From positions 4,092,001-4,156,000 of the forward strand of contig NZ_CP087164.1 of NCBI RefSeq assembly GCF_021172045.1: a stretch of DNA of 64,000 bases. Direction: 5' to 3'. This document shows, piece after piece, positions 54,282 through 63,103 of this stretch. The DNA is from Capillimicrobium parvum. Its GTDB lineage: Bacteria > Actinomycetota > Thermoleophilia > Solirubrobacterales > Solirubrobacteraceae. The translations under genes and the position numbers were made by a program. How positions within the stretch are numbered: position 1 is the stretch's first letter; the number at the start of each line of letters is the position of its first letter. The notes below the pieces were generated by a model. That model was not told where the DNA came from, ran no database searches, and worked only from the letters and a program-made list of their open reading frames with translations.

Positions 54282-54307
54282 AGGGTGAGCGAGGGGACTC
54301 GAACCCC
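54282..54307. repeat. Left attachment site, first 26 bp
   Basis: Identical to 63029-63054, the T-arm and acceptor 3' part of tRNA-His (reads GGTGAGCGAGGGGACTCG on the plus strand). Its last 8 bp, CGAACCCC, are the IS256 target duplication. Confidence 0.9.
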
Positions 54308-55721
54308 AGTCAAGTCGCGTTTCGTGGTGTAGCTCGCGATCGTCGGTGTGATCGTCTGCTGCTCAGGCGGCGGTGAGCTCGATCACCTCCTGTTGATCAT
54401 GGGCAGGAGATGGCCCGGTCTGCGCAGCGTCGAGTACCTGCTTGAGCGAGTGCTCGGAGAGGTAGCGGCGGGCGACCAACCACTCGTCGTTCTGTTCGAT
54501 GAGGACCATGCCGGCCAGCCGGATCAGGGCGGCGTCGTTGGGAAAGATCCCGACGACGTCGGAGCGCCGGCCGATCTCGCGGTTCATGCGCTCCAGCGGA
54601 TTGGTGGAGCGCAGCTTGGGCCAGTGGTCCTTGGGAAACGCGTAGAAGGCCAGCAGCTCGGGCTCGGCGTCCTCGAGCAACCGCGCGACCTTCGGCGCCG
54701 GCCCGCGGAGCCGATCGACGACCTCGCCAAGCCGCTCGCCGGCCTCGACGCCGTCTGAGGCGTTGAAGATCTGGCGGATCGCGGTGGCGATCATCGGCTG
54801 TTGCGCCTTGCCGACATGGCCCAGCATGTCGCGCAGGAAATGCACGGTGCAGCGCTGCCACGGCGCGTCGAGCACCCGGGCGATCGCGTTGCGGAGGCCC
54901 TGATGCGCGTCGGAAACGACCAAGCGCACCCCTTGCAGGCCGCGGGCGCGCAGCGAGTGCAGAAACTCCGTCCAGAACGCCTCGGTCTCGGCCTCGCCGA
55001 CATCGAGGCCGATGACCTCGCGCCGGCCGCTGTCGTGGACGGCGTAGGCGATGACCAACGCCTTCTGGCGCACCCCGCCCCGTTCGCGGACGCGCTCGAT
55101 CTTGGCGTCCAACCACAGATACGGATAGGCGCCCTCCAGCGGCCGCTCGCGGAACGCCGTGACCTGCTCGTCCAGGCCGCGGCACATCCGGCTGACCTGG
55201 TCCTTCGATAGGCCGCGCAACCCCATCTGCTCGACGAGCCGATCGACCTTCCGCGTCGAGACGCCGTTGACGTAGGCCTCCTGGACGACCGCGACCAGCG
55301 CCTGCTCGGCGCGCCGCCGCGGCTCCAGAAACGACGGCAGATAGCTGCCCGTCCGCAACCGCGGGATCTCCAGCTCAATCTCGCCGACCCGGGTGTCCCA
55401 GCGCCGCTGGCGATACCCGTTGCGCTGCGCGCTGCGGCGCTCGGGGGCGCGCTCTCCGAGCTCGGCGCCGACCAGTTGCGCGACCTCGGCCTCCATGATC
55501 TCGCGCACCATCAGCGCCACGCTCTCGCGCAGCAGATCGGCGTGCTCGAGCGCGAGCACCCCCTCGGCCGCCTCGCGGGCGGTCACACTGTCCTTCCCGG
55601 CCATCGTGGTGTCCCTTCGTCAACTTCTTGGCAGAAGCCGACGATCATCGGGCCCACGGTGGCCGGAACCGTCCCGGCCAGCCCGTCAGCCCCCAGCTAC
55701 ACCACTTCTAACGACCTGACC
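54308..55721. mobile_element. Complete IS256-family insertion sequence
   Basis: 1414 bp. Imperfect terminal inverted repeats: left starts AGTCAAGTCG, right (complement) GGTCAGGTCG, and both contain GTGGTGTAGCT at positions 17-27. The element is flanked by the 8-bp direct repeat CGAACCCC (54300-54307 and 55722-55729), the size expected for IS256. Removing the IS and one repeat restores a continuous tRNA-His att copy. It holds a single intact transposase gene on the minus strand. Confidence 0.93.
54363..55604 (-). CDS. IS256-family (Mutator-type) transposase
   Basis: 413 aa, full length. The DDE triad is intact: first Asp in YPYLWLDAKIERVRERGG, second in VVSDAHQGLRNAI and Glu in STNPLERMNREIGRR; the C/H region AVLDAPWQRCTVHFLRDML (in part) fits the insertion domain. 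Catalyses copy-paste transposition. Because it is intact inside a decayed element, it is the youngest event in this stretch. Confidence 0.97.
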   Translation of the reverse strand: MAGKDSVTAREAAEGVLALEHADLLRESVALMVREIMEAEVAQLVGAELGERAPERRSAQRNGYRQRRWDTRVGEIELEIPRLRTGSYLPSFLEPRRRAEQALVAVVQEAYVNGVSTRKVDRLVEQMGLRGLSKDQVSRMCRGLDEQVTAFRERPLEGAYPYLWLDAKIERVRERGGVRQKALVIAYAVHDSGRREVIGLDVGEAETEAFWTEFLHSLRARGLQGVRLVVSDAHQGLRNAIARVLDAPWQRCTVHFLRDMLGHVGKAQQPMIATAIRQIFNASDGVEAGERLGEVVDRLRGPAPKVARLLEDAEPELLAFYAFPKDHWPKLRSTNPLERMNREIGRRSDVVGIFPNDAALIRLAGMVLIEQNDEWLVARRYLSEHSLKQVLDAAQTGPSPAHDQQEVIELTAA

Positions 55722-55729
55722 CGAACCCC

Positions 55730-55749
55730 CGACCGCCTGGACCACAACC
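55730..55749. repeat. Left attachment site, remaining 20 bp
   Basis: CGACCGCCTGGACCACAACC, identical to 63055-63074 (variable loop and anticodon arm of tRNA-His). It continues the copy that ends at 54307 and was split off by the IS256 insertion. Confidence 0.9.
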
Positions 55750-55785
55750 GGTACGACGGGGCAGCGCTGGGTGTATTTCCCGCTG

Positions 55786-56830
55786 TCATGCGGACTGAGT
55801 GTCGCTCAGGTGCGCTGAGTTGCGCTCAGTTTGGGCCCCAGATTGGGCCCCGAACGCCACATCGACGAGATCGACCTCCCGCTCGCTCGGCAGGTAGTCG
55901 GCGTACATCAGCGTCGTCTTGAAGTCGCGGTGGCCCATCCACCCCTGCAGGGTGCGCATCGGCACGCCCGCGCCGGCCATCCGCGTGCCGAACGTGTGGC
56001 GCAGGTCGTGGAAGCGGACCTCGCGCACGCCGGCCCGGCGCAGCGCCGCCTTGAAGCGCTTGAGCAGCCGGCTGCGGTCGATCGGCTTGCCGGTGTGCGG
56101 GTGCGCGAACACGAGCTCGTCGTCGCCCTGGTACGCGGTGGCCTGGTAGTGGCGGTCGAGCGCGCCGCCGAGCGCGTCGCCGAGCGGCACGGCGCGCGTC
56201 GAGCGCTTGCTCTTCGGCGTGCCGATCTCACCGCGCACGAAGTTGCGCCGGCCGCGGATCCGGCGCGCGGGCCAGTCGACGTCCGACCAGCGCAACGCGA
56301 GGAGCTCGCCCTAGCGCATCCCGGTCATCGCCGCCGTCAGGTACATGACGCGCTCGACGCGGCCCAGGTCGTCGTCGGGCACGGCAGCGATGAGCGCATC
56401 GAGCTCGGCCTGGTCGAGGAAGTGCACGTCGGCGTCGCCGCCCTCGGGCCGGGGCCGGTCGATGAGCTTGCACGGGTTCGCCGGCGCCCACCCGCGACGC
56501 ATGGCGTAGTCAAAGATCGAGGCAGGAGCCCGAGGTAGTTCAGCTTGCTTTTGACGGACTGCCCGTGCCGGCGGCAGTGCGCGACGAACGCCTCGACGTC
56601 ATCGCCCGTGATCCGCTCGAGCGCCCGGTCACCGAAGTACGGGGCGAGATGGATGCGTAGGTAGGACTCGTAGCCCTCGAGCGTCGAGCGCTTGCGCCCG
56701 AGGGTCGTGAGGTGGTCGAGCAGCCGGTGTCCGGCGTCGGCCACCGTGAGCCGAGCGACGACGACCGGGACCGCGGCCTCCATCAGCCGGCGCATCTCGC
56801 GCTCGGCTTGCCGGCGACGAGTGCCGGGAG
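55786..56830 (-). pseudogene. int: Tyrosine integrase, broken by a frameshift and an amber codon
   Basis: Order of parts: core-binding domain (RLTVADAGHRLLDHLTTLGR, YESYLRIHLAPYFGDRALER), then catalytic domain with TGMR, HDLRHTFGTRMAGAGVPMRT (His-x-x-Arg) and the Tyr in TTLMYADYLPSEREV. Two lesions: loss of one base near 56524 shifts the frame inside KLNYLGLL/ASIFDYAMRRGW, and TAG at 56311-56313 replaces what is normally Gln in TGMRQGELLALRW. It lies beside the left attachment site. At the N-terminal side the frame runs into the ATPase gene without a stop. Confidence 0.88.
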
Positions 56831-57011
56831 CTCGCCGCAGCGCGAGCACGTCGGCGTGCCGTTCGAGGCCGGCCGGCCGTTCCCGCTCGAGGGCGCCGCT
56901 CCTCTCCTCGAGGGCGAAACGTCGACGGGGGAATCCGCGCTCGAGGGTGGACCACCAACCGGGTCCCGAGATTGGGACCCGGTTGACGGGTCCTCGAGCC
57001 CTGAGGCAACC

Positions 57012-57542
57012 GTTGTCGAGCATCACCACCGCGACGCCGGCGCCGACGAGCGGCTGCACGAGCCGGTCATAGAACTGCACGAACTCGGCGTTTGAGCTAT
57101 CGAAGTCGAGATCGAGCGCGGACGCGACGGCGGACAGCGGGTCGATGACCACGACGTCGTACGCCGGCGGAACGTCGCGCGCCCAGGCGTCCGGCTCGTC
57201 CCATGCCTGCACGAGCACGCTCGAGAGCTCGAGGTAGCGCACCCGCTCGAGCTCGCCGACGAGCTCGTCGTCGATCGCGTCGCCGCGCCGCTCGGGCAGG
57301 TCGCGAGCTCGCGCGTTCCACTCGCTCGCGGTCACCTCCGAACCGAGATACGCGACCCGCAGGCCGGCGCGCGCGGCGTCGTAGGCGCCGGCCTGCACGA
57401 GCGACGAGCGCCCGCCACCGGTCGGGCCGACGATCACCGCGCCGGCGCCGGCGTGCAGGAACGGGAAGCCGGCCAGCGCCGGGAGCGGCTCGGGGTCCTC
57501 CGCGAGCGGGTTGGTCGGGAGCCCGTCGATCCAGGACGTCAT
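57012..57542 (-). pseudogene. RepA-like AAA ATPase, 3' part lost and fused to integrase
   Basis: 177 recognisable residues: P-loop AVIVGPTGGGRSSLVQAGAY (Arg where most Walker A motifs have Lys), VAYLGSEVTASEWNARARDL and the Walker B strand YDVVVIDPLSAVASALDLDF. Similarity ends at VVMLDN (57012), after which about 190 bp of unrelated codons lead in frame into the integrase. Full-length relatives have another 100-150 residues. ATG start overlaps the primase stop (ATGA). Confidence 0.7.
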
Positions 57543-58443
57543 CGGATCGCCCCCGTCCCGGTCACGCGCACGAGCTCGTCGAGCGCGTTGCCGCCTCGCT
57601 CATCGACTTCGCGCAGATAGTCGGTCACATCGAACCGGTCGCGTCGCGTGGGGTCGATGTCGACGATGCTGTGCTCGATGTCGGCCGCGTCCAGGTCGCC
57701 GGCGATCCGCGCGGCTGCGTCGCGGCCCGCCTGATCGGCGTCCATCATCACGAGGACGTAGCGGCCGGCGAACCGCGCCGTCCACTCCGATCGCCAGGCG
57801 CCGACGCCGGGTAGGCCCGTGCTCGGCAGGCCGGCGCTCAGGCCGTCCAGCGCGTCGGGCTCGCCCTCGACGATCGCGACGATGGAGCTCGAGATCCGCT
57901 CGGGCGCCGGAAACAGTTGCCGGGTCGTGTTGGCGACGGCGAGGCTCTTCGAGCTCCGGCCGGGGCGATCGGTGTAGCGGATCGCGCCGGTGAGCTCGCC
58001 GAGCTCGTCCCGCGACGGGAAGGTGAACCGCGAGCCGTCCCAGCCCACTTTGGCCTGTCGGAGCGTGCGCCACGTCCAGCGTCGCGCTGCGAGGCGCGGA
58101 CCGAACCGGACCACGAGCTCGAGCCGATCGTCGTGCAGGTTCTCCATCCACTCGCGGACGAGCTCCTCGTTGACCTCCGCACGCGCCTGGACTTTCGGGC
58201 TCGCGCGCCGCCGGCGCTTGGGCGCCGAGATCTGCGTCCCGAACGCCTCGAGCACCTCGAGTTGCCCGCAGCCGCGGAAGCAGTGCCAGAGTGGCCGGCG
58301 GTCGTCGCCCTGACCGACCGACAGGCTGCGCCGGTGGCGTCGTCGTGCGCGGGGCAGAAGCTCAACCAGCCGGAGCCGACGCGCTGGGGTGAGAGCTCGA
58401 GCTCGTCGAGACGGGCGACGAGCTCGGCGGCGGTGGTGATCAC
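57539..58443 (-). pseudogene. Phage TOPRIM primase with one frameshift
   Basis: N-terminal zinc-binding part MITTAAELVARLDELELSPQ (GTG start) with FCPAHDD in one frame, then SLSVGQGDDRRPLWHCFRGC in the next, so one base is missing near 58333 between the two zinc-ligand pairs. The TOPRIM domain is intact further on: AIVEGEPDALDGL (Glu) and YVLVMMDADQAGRDAAARIA (DxD). It would have primed element replication. Coupled to neighbours on both sides by GTGA and ATGA overlaps. Confidence 0.82.
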
Positions 58444-59041
58444 GCGACCACCTCCGAGAAGTCCATCTGCGGGCTGGGGCGCAGCGCGTGCTCGGGCGCG
58501 AGCTCATCCCAACCGTAGACGCGCCGGCGCGGGAACGCCGGCGGTGGTTCTGCTGGGCCGTCGTCTCCGTCGCCGGAGTCGCCGCCACGCGAGCTCGCGG
58601 TGCTCGAGCTCGGGGTCCGGCGGCCCGGCGGCCGGCCGCTCGAGCTCGGCCGGCGACGCAGCGGCATGCTGCGCCGCGGCGCCGCGACGATGCACGACTC
58701 GGCGACGTCCGCGCCGCCGGTGATGGCGATCCCGCGGCGGGCGCGGACCTCGCGGATGGCCTCGCGGCGCTCGCGGTCGGCCGCCTCGGCGCGACCCGGA
58801 TGCTCCGCGTAGTACTGCTCGATCTGCTCGGCCGACGCAAGTCACAGACCGTCGCGCCGGGGTACGGGTGGGCGAGCAGTCGCACGATCCTCGTGTCGTC
58901 GCCGGCGGCAGCACGGCCGTCGGTCGTCTTGCGGTGGGCGTGTAGCGGCATCGTGCTGGCGAGCAGTTGGATGCACGCCCACGCGTCACTGCAGCGCTGC
59001 CAGTTCGACTGGCTGATCTCGAGCGGCTGGCTGCCGCCCAT
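58440..59041 (-). pseudogene. Element protein of unknown function, one frameshift
   Basis: First part MGGSQPLEISQSNWQRCSDA ... LLAHPYPGATVCDL, then near 58845 the frame changes to SAEQIEQYYAEHPGRAEAAD and RRGIAITGGADVAESCIVAA, followed by a Ser/Pro/Gly-rich stretch and GWDELAPEHALRPSPQMDFS. About 200 aa before the lesion. It overlaps the primase start (GTGA), so it was the first gene of the leftward replication block. Confidence 0.6.
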
Positions 59042-59218
59042 GTAGGACCACGACGGCTGAACGTCGGGCGCGGCGAGCGCGCGGTCCTCGGGGGGTTGTG
59101 GTTCGGAAAAGTCGCATAGCGGGTGACGTGGTGGCGCCCGTCTCGAGCGGCCTGGGGGTGCTTCGTCACGCGCTTTCGGGCGACGTCCTGCGTCGAGCTC
59201 GCTACCGAGCTCGGGACG

Positions 59219-59246
59219 AATGGTATCGTCGTCGTACCATTTCGGC
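59219..59246 (+). promoter_or_regulatory. Inverted repeat and leaderless promoter before the terminase
   Basis: AATGGTA (59219-59225) and TACCATT (59235-59241) form a perfect 7-bp dyad with a 9-bp spacer. The right arm contains TACCAT, a -10 match that ends 6 nt before the terminase ATG. A repressor binding the dyad would block the promoter directly. The rest of the 205-bp divergent gap (59042-59246) shows no gene. Confidence 0.5.
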
Positions 59247-60382
59247 ATGACGATCGCCACGGGCACCGACTTCGACGCGTTCGCTGCGGCGTGCGGGCTC
59301 GAGGTCGAGGGGTTCCAGCGCGCGATCATCGCGGCCGTGCACGGCGACGAGGCCGAGGTGTTGATCACGATCGGGCGCGGCAACGGCAAGACGTCGCTGC
59401 TGGCGCTGCTTGCGCTGCACCACCTCGTGACCGTCGAGGACAGCGAGATCTACGTCGTCGCCGCCTCCCGCCGGCAGGCGACCGAGCTCTACAAGTACGC
59501 GCAGCGCTACGCGCGCCGGCTGGGCGACGAGCACGTCGTGACGCGCCACCTGCTCGTGCGGTGGTGTCCCGATCCCGACGAACCGCGGACCTTCACGCGC
59601 ACGCTCGAGGGCTCGCGAGCGATGCCCGGAAGCTGCACGGCACGACGTTCTCGCTAGCCGTCGTGGACGACCTCGCGCAGCACGAGACGGCCGACGTCTA
59701 CGAGGCGATGTCGACCGGGTTGCACAAGCGGCCGGGGGCACGGGTGATCACGATCACGACGGCCGGCGTGGGCATCGACTCGCCGCTCGGCCGGCTCCGG
59801 GCGCGCTGCCTCGCGCAGCCCGACGTGCGGCGCCGCGGCTCCGTCACCGACGCGCGCGGGCCGGGCCTGCGGATGATCGAGTGAGCGGCGCCGGAGGACG
59901 TCGAGCTCGACGACCTCGCCGCGGCGCGGGCGGCGAACCCGGCGTCGTGGGTCACCGAGGACGAGCCCCGGCGCCAGCGCGGCGCGCTCCCGGAGAACGT
60001 GTATCGGCGCTACCTGCTGAACCAGTGGACGGCGCGGGAAGGCGCCTGGCTGCCTGTCGGTAGCTGGCAGGCCGCAGTGGGCGAGCCGACGTTCACCGAC
60101 GGCGAGCGGATCTACGTCGGCCCTCCCGCTCGAGCTCGGCGGCGAGTTCGGGCGTTCCACGGGTCGAAGCTGATCTCCGCGACCGTGTAGCGCGCTGCGA
60201 GCTCGCGGTGTGGTCGGCGACGTCGAGGATCGCGCTCTCGCCGTCATAGATCCCGCAGCCAACCTGACCGTGGTCATTGACCCACGCCAGCGCGCTGCTG
60301 GACTCACCGCAACCGCCGGGGCTGGCGCATCTCGAAGCCGCGATCGCGCCCGCGCATCGACGGCGTGATCGCGCTGGTTCGG
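59247..60382 (+). pseudogene. Phage terminase large subunit, frameshifted, interrupted and partly inverted
   Basis: N terminus FDAFAAACGLEVEGFQRAII, Walker A TIGRGNGKTSLLALLALHHL, then a one-base loss near 59606 moves the frame to SDARKLHGTTFSLAVVDDLA (Walker B). TGA at 59882-59884 stands where relatives have Trp (MIE-W-AAPEDVELDD). The frame continues NVYRRYLLNQWTAREGAWLP to ERIYVG at 60121; the next segment is inverted (see separate entry), and the C-terminal part RGWRISKPRSRPRIDGVIAL resumes in forward orientation at 60317. About 100 residues between are missing. Confidence 0.85.
60122..60317 (-). pseudogene. Inverted piece of the terminase nuclease domain
   Basis: Read on the minus strand it encodes GGCGESSSALAWVNDHGQVG, CGIYDGESAILDVADH, then after small frame changes LAARYTVAEISFDPW and PELAAELEREG. 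In intact terminases exactly this stretch follows the IYVG that ends the forward part at 60121. The piece has therefore been flipped in place. Confidence 0.75.
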
Positions 60383-60524
60383 CGGCCGCTGCGCGGTGTG
60401 CGGGGCGTGGGGCGTGCCGATGGAGATCCACCATCGCGACCACGATCACCGCGACAACGCCGTTGGCAACCTCGAACCGCTGTGTCGGCCCTGTCACGCT
60501 CGAGCCGGCCGCGAGCCGCGCTGA
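60369..60524 (+). pseudogene. HNH endonuclease remnant
   Basis: Follows an in-frame stop and reads SRWFGGRCAVCGAWGVPMEI, then HHRDHDHRDNAVGNLEPLCR and PCHARAGREPR. The Cys pairs and the HH...N...L..LC..CH pattern are those of phage HNH nucleases, which normally lie next to terminase genes and assist packaging. No start codon precedes the first Cys, so the 5' end is lost at the junction with the terminase. Confidence 0.7.
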
Positions 60525-60714
60525 ACGGACGGCTCGCAACCCTGGCATACCTAGCCATGCCTGCCGTGCCAGCAAGCCGTGCCGGACCGCACGACGATTG
60601 GAGCGCCGCGGCGGCCCCGATCTCCGCCGTTAGCCGAGGCGGCGCCGCGCGTTTTCTACGGATGCGGTCGGGCCGTCCGCGGAGATAGCTTCGGGTGCAT
60701 CGAAAGGGGTTCTC

Positions 60715-60900
60715 ATGCATCACTCCCCCAAGCACATCTTGCTCTGCGTGGCGTCCGGCGCGCTGGCCGCCATCCTCTCGGCTGTCGGCGTTGGGCTCTG
60801 GGCGTTGATCCCCGCCGCGATCTGCGCGGTGACGTGCGCTCAGATGATCGTGATGATGGTTCGTGCCAATCACCACGACTCACGTCGGCTGAACTCATAA
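60715..60900 (+). CDS. Small membrane protein, 61 aa
   Basis: Two hydrophobic segments (HILLCVASGALAAILSAVGV and LIPAAICAVTCAQMIVMMV) with a short polar tail (RANHHDSRRLNS). A good ribosome site AAAGGGG lies 5 nt before the ATG. Possibly the only intact gene from the element's right part; could be a holin-like or cargo protein, but nothing proves it. 60525-60714 holds no recognisable feature. Confidence 0.55.
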   Translation: MHHSPKHILLCVASGALAAILSAVGVGLWALIPAAICAVTCAQMIVMMVRANHHDSRRLNS

Positions 60901-60967
60901 TCGCAGGAACTGAAGATCCTGTGCGTGGCACCACTTTTCGGCGGTTCATCGGTCAAGGTGCGCGAGT

Positions 60968-61171
60968 TCAGTCCCCAACCTCCTCGATCGCGGTGTCCAT
61001 CTTCGCGAGTCGCGCGGCGCTGTACCACGCCGGCGTGTAGCCGTGCGCAGCGGCGCCGTGCTCCTGAAGCAGCGCCAACACGTCACGGCGTGTATTGGCA
61101 CGGACCTGCATCCCACACGGGACGGGCTGCACCGTCGAGCAGGACATGACAAAACCAAAATCGGAGGGCAT
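60968..61171 (-). CDS. Small protein, 67 aa, with structured start site
   Basis: MPSDFGFVMSCSTVQPVPCG then MQVRANTRRDVLALLQEHGA and TPAWYSAARLAKMDTAIEEV. Helical, no known domain. Start chosen because AGGAGGG lies 6 nt upstream; that ribosome site and the AUG are inside a small hairpin. Lower GC than the host average around it. Upstream, 61172-61391 holds no recognisable gene. Confidence 0.5.
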   Translation of the reverse strand: MPSDFGFVMSCSTVQPVPCGMQVRANTRRDVLALLQEHGAAAHGYTPAWYSAARLAKMDTAIEEVGD

Positions 61172-61182
61172 CGAGACCCTCC
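61163..61182 (-). promoter_or_regulatory. Hairpin over ribosome site and start codon
   Basis: GGAGGG and CCCTCC arms with loop TCTCGATG in the mRNA. The 5' arm is the Shine-Dalgarno and the AUG closes the loop, so folding would hinder initiation. Confidence 0.45.
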
Positions 61183-61391
61183 TTCCTGACGCCCGCAAAT
61201 GCTCGGAGGCACGGCAAGGGCATCGGTCGATGAAACCAGTGTCCTCCCGCCGCCGCCGAATAGCAATGGACCGCGGGTCCTGCAATTGTTGCGGATCTTG
61301 CGGCAAATGCGGGTCAACCGCGGTGAGACGGCCGTTTTTGCCCCGGCGCGTAGGGAGGGGTATCCGCGCACGCTGCCCAAAAAAAGGTACG

Positions 61392-61927
61392 TCAGTCTGC
61401 GTCGTCAGCTCCACGCGTGAAGTAGCCGCCCTCAGGCAACTGCGCCCACGGTGCTGTCGGATGCACTTCGTTCCACACCTCCTCGTCGGCGCGGACCCTG
61501 CCGCGACGGCCCTTGCGCAGTCGTTGCTTGCGTCCGTCGCGCGTGACACCCAGGATGACTCATCCGCAGTCCGGTAGATGACGAGCGCTTCTGCCTCCTG
61601 GGTCGGCGGGAGCGACGCGGTGACGCGCACCTTGGTCCCTGGCGCGAGGAACCCGTCGTCGAGCAGTCCCGCCACGCGCCTGCCGCCCGACGTCAGCCAT
61701 GAAGAGCACGCCCTTGGCGATTCCTCCGCCGCGTTGGTGACGGTCAGGACGGTTTGGTGTTGGCCGAGCAGGCCGACCTGCAGGTGTACGTCGGGCTCGA
61801 TGGATGCGGCGATCGCCCGCTGGCCCTGCTTCACGGTCATCAGAGCAGCAGTCGCGGCGGGGGCGGTGAAGAGAGCACTGGCGCCGGCGGCGACGGCGGC
61901 AACGGTGTCGGCAGTGGATGTCGGCAC
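61392..61927 (-). pseudogene. Element-borne hypothetical protein with compensating frameshifts
   Basis: Starts TADTVAAVAAGASALFTAPA (a hydrophobic N-terminal segment), then LQVGLLGQHQTVLTVTNAAE; a shift gives GIAKGVLFMADV, another returns to RVAGLLDDGFLAPGTKVRVT, and a third near 61535 opens GRKQRLRKGRRGRVRADEEV and the end WAQLPEGGYFTRGADDAD at a stop at 61392. Original length about 175 aa. No family recognised. Confidence 0.55.
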
Positions 61928-61978
61928 GGTGAGACGCGACGTTATGTCGCCGCTCGGTTGGATCGGCCCGCTCGGCCC

Positions 61979-62246
61979 TCAGTCGTCGAGCAGGCCGAGC
62001 CACCGGTCGGGGGCCGCGACGTCGCCGTGCTCGCCGGCGTTGACCGTGACCATCGCGGAAAACAGGCGGGCGAGGATGACCGCCTCGAGGTCCTCGCGGC
62101 TCATCGCCTGCACGGCCATGAGCGCCTGCGCGATGTTCGGCCGCTCACGCAGGCCGGCCCACAACAGGTCACCGTCGTGCAGAGCGCGATGCCACGGGCC
62201 GGCGTAGCGCGGCCCGTCGAACGGATCGGCGGGGATCGTCGGTCAT
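61979..62246 (-). pseudogene. Small phage-type protein with one frameshift
   Basis: MTDDP, then a one-base change near 62230 and DPFDGPRYAGPWHRALHDGD, LLWAGLRERPNIAQALMAVQ and LFSAMVTVNAGEHGDVAAPD to a stop at 61979; about 88 aa originally. AGGAGAGGA precedes the ATG. Unknown function. Confidence 0.55.
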
Positions 62247-62283
62247 TGGTCGTGTGTCCTCTCCTCCGGGGTGGTGGGGTTGG

Positions 62284-62533
62284 TCAGGCGGCGTCCTGGC
62301 CGGGCCGCTGCGGGCTCGTCGTGACGTGCCACAGGTGGCAGTGCGGGCACCGGTAGACGACGAACGGACCGCCCGCGAACTGGGGCAGGCTGCCGCCGCG
62401 CAATAGCGCGGGCCGCTCGCTTCGCCGCGCCGGGCGATCGGTAGGCGACCTTCGCTCGCCCAGTGTGCGGATCCACGCACCGCTCGCGCTTGTCGTACGT
62501 GTTGCGCGGCGGCCGCCAACTGGCGCCGGTCAT
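62284..62533 (-). pseudogene. Small zinc-finger protein with one frameshift
   Basis: MTGASWRPPRNTYDKRERCV then DPHTGRAKVAYRSPGAAKRA; after a frame change near 62410 it continues GGSLPQFAGGPFVVYRCPHC and HLWHVTTSPQRPGQDAA. The pattern CV...CPHCHLWH suggests a zinc ribbon, as in small phage proteins. The ATG overlaps the stop of the next gene upstream (ATGA). Confidence 0.55.
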
Positions 62534-62817
62534 TGGTCGTGCGTGGTGTCGGGGCCGACGATCAGCGAGCGCGGCACGGTCACGAGGCCGATCGTCTTCG
62601 TCGGGTCGTCGACGTCGGCGCTACGCCAGTAGCCGACGAACACCTCGAAGCGGCCGTCGCCGATCGGCCGCACGAACCGCCAGGCGCCGGCGGCATACAT
62701 CGCGTCGATCTCAGCGCGCCGCGGATGGTTGATCGTCGCGGCCTCCGCGATGTCGTCCAAGCGCTGCGGAACCGCCGGCCGGCCTCCTCTCTTCCGCTGC
62801 CCGCCGCTTGTCGTCAT
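62530..62817 (-). CDS. Small element protein, 95 aa, unknown
   Basis: GGRPAVPQRLDDIAEAATIN, HPRRAEIDAMYAAGAWRFVR and FEVFVGYWRSADVDDPTKTI; mixed alpha/beta, soluble. ATG at 62817 gives the longest clean frame, but a better ribosome site (GGGAGG) precedes an ATG at 62842 in a different frame (MSDEYQPTDDDKRRAAEE), so the true gene may have been longer and is now frameshifted near 62790. Confidence 0.5.
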   Translation of the reverse strand: MTTSGGQRKRGGRPAVPQRLDDIAEAATINHPRRAEIDAMYAAGAWRFVRPIGDGRFEVFVGYWRSADVDDPTKTIGLVTVPRSLIVGPDTTHDQ

Positions 62818-63000
62818 CGGTGGGCTGGTACTCGTCGCTCATGCGACCTCCCATCTCGTACTCGTCAAGGCATAGCACCTTACGCACCGGATATGTGTGC
62901 TTAGCCGTCCTAGGCATGGTCAGACGGATGACCTTCGCCAACGAACGATTTGGCCCCGATTGGGCCCCGGGCGGTCCGTGTAGTCGGCGCCTGAAGGCGA

Positions 63001-63024
63001 GAAGCCCCGCCGGAGCGGGGCTTC
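63001..63024 (-). terminator. Terminator hairpin of tRNA-His
   Basis: Perfect 10-bp stem GAAGCCCCGC / GCGGGGCTTC with a 4-nt loop, starting 6 nt beyond the tRNA 3' end. No T run follows, as is common in GC-rich actinobacteria. It belongs to the element side of the attachment site. Confidence 0.7.
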
Positions 63025-63028
63025 TGCG

Positions 63029-63074
63029 AGGGTGAGCGAGGGGACTCGAACCCCCGACCGCCTGGACCACAACC
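63029..63074. repeat. Right attachment site (46 bp, inside tRNA-His)
   Basis: Identical over 46 bp to the interrupted copy at 54282-54307 plus 55730-55749. It covers the tRNA from the anticodon loop to the 3' end plus 2 bp. The identity ends at 63074/55749. Confidence 0.9.
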
Positions 63075-63103
63075 AGGAGCTCTACCAGCTGAGCTACGCC
63101 CAC
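63031..63103 (-). tRNA. tRNA-His (anticodon GTG)
   Basis: 73 nt, cloverleaf complete: acceptor GTGGGCG/CGCTCAC with one G-T pair, D stem GCTC/GAGC, anticodon arm CCTGG-TTGTGGT-CCAGG, T arm with TTCGAGT. A G at position -1 (63104) and C at the discriminator position are the tRNA-His identity pair. CCA is not encoded. The 3' half served as attachment site for the element to its left. Confidence 0.96.

What the first reader, a model, noticed from the sequence alone, without database searches (positions are those of the whole stretch)
60122..60317. Part of the terminase gene is inverted in place
The forward terminase frame ends at ERIYVG (60121). The residues that follow in intact terminases (SSSALAWVNDHGQVG ... 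FDPW ... ELAAELEREG) are encoded on the opposite strand in the next ~195 bp, and the C terminus (RGWRISKPRSRPRIDG) then resumes on the plus strand at 60317. A small precise inversion inside one gene is unusual decay; it might reflect microhomology (GAGCTCG-type repeats are frequent here) or a recombinase acting on short sites.
Basis: partly seen in the sequence, partly recalled or inferred. Interest (0 to 1): 0.6.

Follow-up and report, generated by a model that had tools for sequence, protein, structure and literature searches.

The report
Short inversion in a dead terminase
Inside the broken DNA-packaging gene of a decaying phage-satellite remnant, about 190 bases sit flipped end-for-end with a stretch lost beside them; this is a real but ordinary scar of sloppy DNA replication or repair in a gene that no longer works.

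Summary
tblastn with an intact relative (L013) and a profile of 18 relatives match the terminase large-subunit (TerL) gene on the plus strand up to 60121. The next residues are on the minus strand at about 60314-60132. The C terminus (RRGWRISKP) resumes on the plus strand at 60311-60376. None of 65 other loci with a TerL match shows an opposite-strand piece. It is not a clean inversion: about 189-196 bp are flipped, about 3-4 codons (VDV) are missing at the left junction and about 48 codons (~144 bp) at the right. No inverted repeat sits at both breakpoints, so a site-specific recombinase is unlikely. GAGCTC richness is no more than its sub-words predict. Best explanation: one short-range template switch (or non-homologous re-ligation; the genome has Ku genes) in a dead gene. 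TerL also has a TGA stop and frameshifts, and lies in a 7.3-kb satellite remnant at tRNA-His whose integrase is broken and whose far attachment site is split by an IS256-like element. The genome is one 5.95-Mb contig with an intact rpoC frame, so gross sequencing error is unlikely; reads could not be inspected. Ordinary decay; low interest.

The parts
59249..60121 (+). TerL pseudogene, N-terminal ATPase part, with a frameshift near 59600 and an in-frame TGA at 59882-59884
   Evidence: tblastn and HMM against relatives; Pfam TerL_ATPase matches to fragments
60122..60310 (-). inverted TerL segment (nuclease-domain start, GESSSALAW...ELEREG), with two internal frameshifts; right end uncertain, up to 60317
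   Evidence: minus-strand HSPs to TerL residues 307-359; HMM positions 302-357 on the minus strand; unique among 66 loci
60311..60376 (+). TerL C-terminal piece NRRGWRISKPRSRPRIDGVIAL, resumed on the plus strand after a loss of about 48 codons
   Evidence: tblastn L013 residues 421-442; HMM 413-439; family alignment
60378..60521 (+). HNH endonuclease C-terminal half, joined to the TerL remnant apparently by a deletion
   Evidence: Pfam HNH E=6.9e-6; tblastn to L052 58% identity
58838..59113 (-). portal protein N-terminal fragment, divergent from TerL as in most relatives (not inverted)
   Evidence: tblastn E down to 4e-22; gene order in relatives
55787..56800 (-). tyrosine integrase pseudogene, with a frameshift and a TAG at 56311-56313
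   Evidence: Pfam Phage_integrase E=1.5e-24 on the C-terminal part; frames shown
54300..55721 (-). IS256/Mutator-family element (transposase 54366-55604) splitting the far attachment site; 8-bp target duplication CGAACCCC
   Evidence: Pfam Transposase_mut E=7e-125; duplication and imperfect terminal inverted repeats
63030..63103 (-). tRNA-His, the attachment site of the satellite; its 3' part is repeated at 55722-55749 and 54282-54307
   Evidence: ARAGORN; exact repeats of 28 and 26 bp

Best explanation
A dead satellite's terminase gene carries a micro-inversion with flanking deletions, most likely made in one step by a short-range DNA polymerase template switch. The polymerase copied as far as ...ERIYVG, jumped to the opposite strand about 190 bp ahead (end of ELEREG), copied backwards to the GGE...SSSAL codons, and jumped back to the original strand further on, at RRGWR. 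In four-point notation this is order 1-3-2-4, which predicts a reversed segment plus loss of the sequence between points 1 and 3 and between points 2 and 4, as seen. The gene was free to decay because the satellite is defective and probably fixed in place. Shown: the inverted segment, the flanking losses, the other lesions and the family context. Inferred: the single event, the template-switch mechanism, and the order of lesions.
For: Inverted order of matches with near-exact profile continuity, absent from the 65 other loci with a TerL match. Losses at both junctions, as expected for a double switch or end-trimmed re-ligation and not for conservative site-specific inversion. No inverted-repeat pair at the two breakpoints. 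Other lesions in the same element: TGA and frameshifts in TerL, broken integrase, portal C terminus and capsid not found, IS in the attachment site. Four-point template-switch model: PMC7954356. Spontaneous inversions in Salmonella: PMC3411829.
Against: An inversion followed by separate deletions, or non-homologous end joining, fits almost as well; the genome has three Ku matches. Reads were not available.
Confidence: 0.6

Rival explanations
1. Non-homologous end joining: two double-strand breaks released a fragment that was trimmed and ligated back in reverse.
For: Ku matches at three places in the genome, E down to 8e-52; losses at both junctions and little visible homology.
Against: Needs two nearby breaks and recapture of a ~190-bp fragment; a single double switch is simpler.
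Confidence: 0.24
2. Assembly or sequencing artefact (chimeric molecules or a mis-joined consensus).
For: Reads not available; junctions seen in one assembly only.
Against: Single 5.95-Mb contig; rpoC in one 1359-aa open frame; the segment is balanced (one copy, reversed), whereas fold-back chimeras duplicate sequence; independent lesions of other kinds show natural decay.
Confidence: 0.07
3. Programmed or recombinase-driven inversion (phase variation) at short sites.
For: The element encodes an integrase remnant, and short inverted repeats occur in the region.
Against: No inverted repeats at the two breakpoints; sequence lost at both ends; the gene is dead in either orientation because of stops and frameshifts; the integrase is broken.
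Confidence: 0.03
4. The minus-strand piece came from a second terminase copy in opposite orientation, inserted where the local piece had been deleted.
For: Several satellites can share one tRNA site; general knowledge, not tested here.
Against: The piece begins in the profile almost exactly where the plus-strand part ends (298 to 302), and no second copy is in the genome by DNA similarity.
Confidence: 0.06

Closest known systems
Short-range template-switch mutations (four-point model, PMC7954356; quasipalindrome mechanism first proposed for bacteria)
   Same: Local reversed-complement copy flanked by loss of sequence, explicable by two switches near one fork
   Different: Ancestral sequence unknown, so the event could not be scored under that model here; about 190 bp is long beside classical quasipalindrome corrections (own knowledge)
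Spontaneous chromosomal inversions in Salmonella (PMC3411829)
   Same: Inversion in a bacterial chromosome without a dedicated recombinase
   Different: Those confirmed had short inverted repeats at the endpoints; here no such pair was found at the two breakpoints
Capsid-forming phage satellites (cf-PICIs and the Streptomyces satellites of PMC10690885), as context
   Same: The element and its relatives carry TerL, portal, HNH and integrase genes, the relatives also capsid, on small contigs
   Different: This copy is a defective remnant without a capsid gene; kinship to cf-PICIs was not tested

Membership tests
Short-range template-switch event | Local segment replaced by its reverse complement | tested here: met
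Short-range template-switch event | One order of switch points accounts for the flanking losses in one step (1-3-2-4) | tested here: met
   Deletions of about 3-4 and 48 codons lie where that order predicts
Short-range template-switch event | Alignment to the pre-event DNA supports the event over independent mutations | not testable with these tools
   No close unrearranged relative found
Site-specific invertible segment | Inverted repeats at both borders | tested here: not met
Site-specific invertible segment | Conservative exchange without loss of sequence | tested here: not met
Site-specific invertible segment | Both orientations in the population | not testable with these tools
   no reads
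Capsid-forming satellite (context) | Own TerL, portal, capsid, HNH and integrase, no tail genes | tested here: inconclusive
   Window has remnants of TerL, portal, HNH and integrase, no capsid found; relatives have capsid; absence of tail genes in relatives not tested

The most novel reading that the evidence does not exclude
The segment flips repeatedly in the population through an unrecognised recombinase acting at very short sites, or breaks made by the element's own terminase/HNH packaging machinery triggered the rearrangement.
Probability: 0.02. Interest if true: 0.55.

Novelty: new member of a known kind. Interest (0 to 1): 0.15.

Why it matters
It is a clear case of a micro-inversion with deletions in a bacterial pseudogene, a type of scar that is easily missed because gene callers read one strand at a time. 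It changes no known biology. Its practical value is a reminder to look on the opposite strand when a pseudogene seems to lack its middle.

Tried and rejected
A recombinase at GAGCTC sites: the motif is frequent but about as expected from its sub-words, and it is not at the right breakpoint. A second inversion involving the portal gene: the portal fragment is opposite to TerL, but 16 of the 22 relatives with both genes have the same divergent order. The TerL pieces in the annotated phage collection: no match. Close relatives in the genus: none with this TerL. Inverted repeats I11, I13 and I17 touch or straddle one breakpoint only and are among 36 pairs in 701 bp, so they were treated as chance. 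The match of one relative (L033) that extends the C-terminal piece leftwards to 60290 was taken as a chance extension into the inverted segment.

Full report
Observation. Tested against intact relatives, the TerL protein of L013 (52% identical to a read-through of the window's TerL pieces) matches the window in the order plus, plus, minus, minus, plus along the gene, with residues 22-303, then 307-359, then 421-442. A profile from 18 relatives gives the same order: 122-298 plus, 302-357 minus, 413-439 plus. Flipping extends the main domain to position 338 and raises its score from 255.7 to 292.2 bits. Among 66 loci with a strong TerL match only the window shows an opposite-strand piece within 3 kb. 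The inversion in the sequence is therefore real and not a chance resemblance.

Anatomy. The family alignment has ...IYVG-VDV-GGE-RSSSALAW...FDPW...ELEREG-[about 48 residues]-SRRGWRI.KP...ID... In the window the VDV codons are missing at the left junction, and the ~48 residues between ELEREG and RRGWR are missing at the right. The right junction is uncertain: 60311-60317 (AACCGCC) can be read as NRR of the plus-strand C terminus or as part of the inverted GG region. I prefer 60310/60311, because the plus-strand reading NRRGWR matches SRRGWR and the minus-strand reading then starts GGTGAG (GE), as in relatives; this is inference. The inverted segment has two frameshifts of its own, and the plus-strand parts have one frameshift and one TGA.

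Context. The gene belongs to a small satellite-like element. Relatives are found in viral contigs, many of about 6-14 kb, and in other genomes of the class. In 16 of the 22 relatives with both genes, portal and TerL are divergent, so the minus-strand portal fragment at 58838-59113 is in its normal orientation. In the window copy most of the portal and the capsid gene are not found, and TerL is joined to the C-terminal half of an HNH endonuclease. The element is bounded by tRNA-His (63030-63103) and a partial copy of the tRNA at 55722-55749; the rest of that copy lies at 54282-54307, and a 1.4-kb IS256/Mutator-family element with an 8-bp target duplication sits between them. The integrase has a frameshift and a TAG. 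The element is therefore defective in many ways, and a rearranged terminase would not be selected against.

Mechanism. A conservative site-specific inversion needs inverted sites at both borders and loses nothing; neither holds. Loss on both sides of a reversed segment is what one double template switch of order 1-3-2-4 gives (model described in PMC7954356; the application to this case is mine). Trimmed end joining could give the same, and the genome encodes Ku-like proteins. Without a close unrearranged relative the two cannot be separated; I prefer template switching because it needs one event and no fragment recapture. The GAGCTC motif is enriched in the element, but not much beyond its sub-word composition.

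Artefact. The genome is a single contig and rpoC lies in one long open frame, so gross indel error is unlikely. A balanced, single-copy reversed segment is not the usual shape of a chimera. Reads would settle it.

Verdict. True observation, ordinary explanation, low interest.

Noticed in passing
window 54300-55721: IS256/Mutator-family element (transposase 54366-55604) inserted in the satellite's attachment-site copy of tRNA-His, with 8-bp target duplication CGAACCCC; it probably hinders excision.
   Followed up: partly
window 55722-63103: A 7.3-kb satellite remnant integrated at tRNA-His: integrase, AAA ATPase, Toprim primase-like, portal, TerL and HNH fragments.
   Followed up: partly
window 56340-57542 (-): An AAA ATPase frame runs directly into the N terminus of the integrase, apparently a deletion fusion.
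   Followed up: no
L013, L040-L057: A family of small elements, many on contigs of about 6-14 kb, mostly with divergent portal/TerL genes; possibly capsid-forming satellites. The TerL pieces of the window had no match in the annotated phage collection.
   Followed up: partly
window 57500-60600: GAGCTC and CTCGAG are about three to four times denser than in the host part of the window; explained by sub-word composition, cause of that composition unknown.
   Followed up: partly
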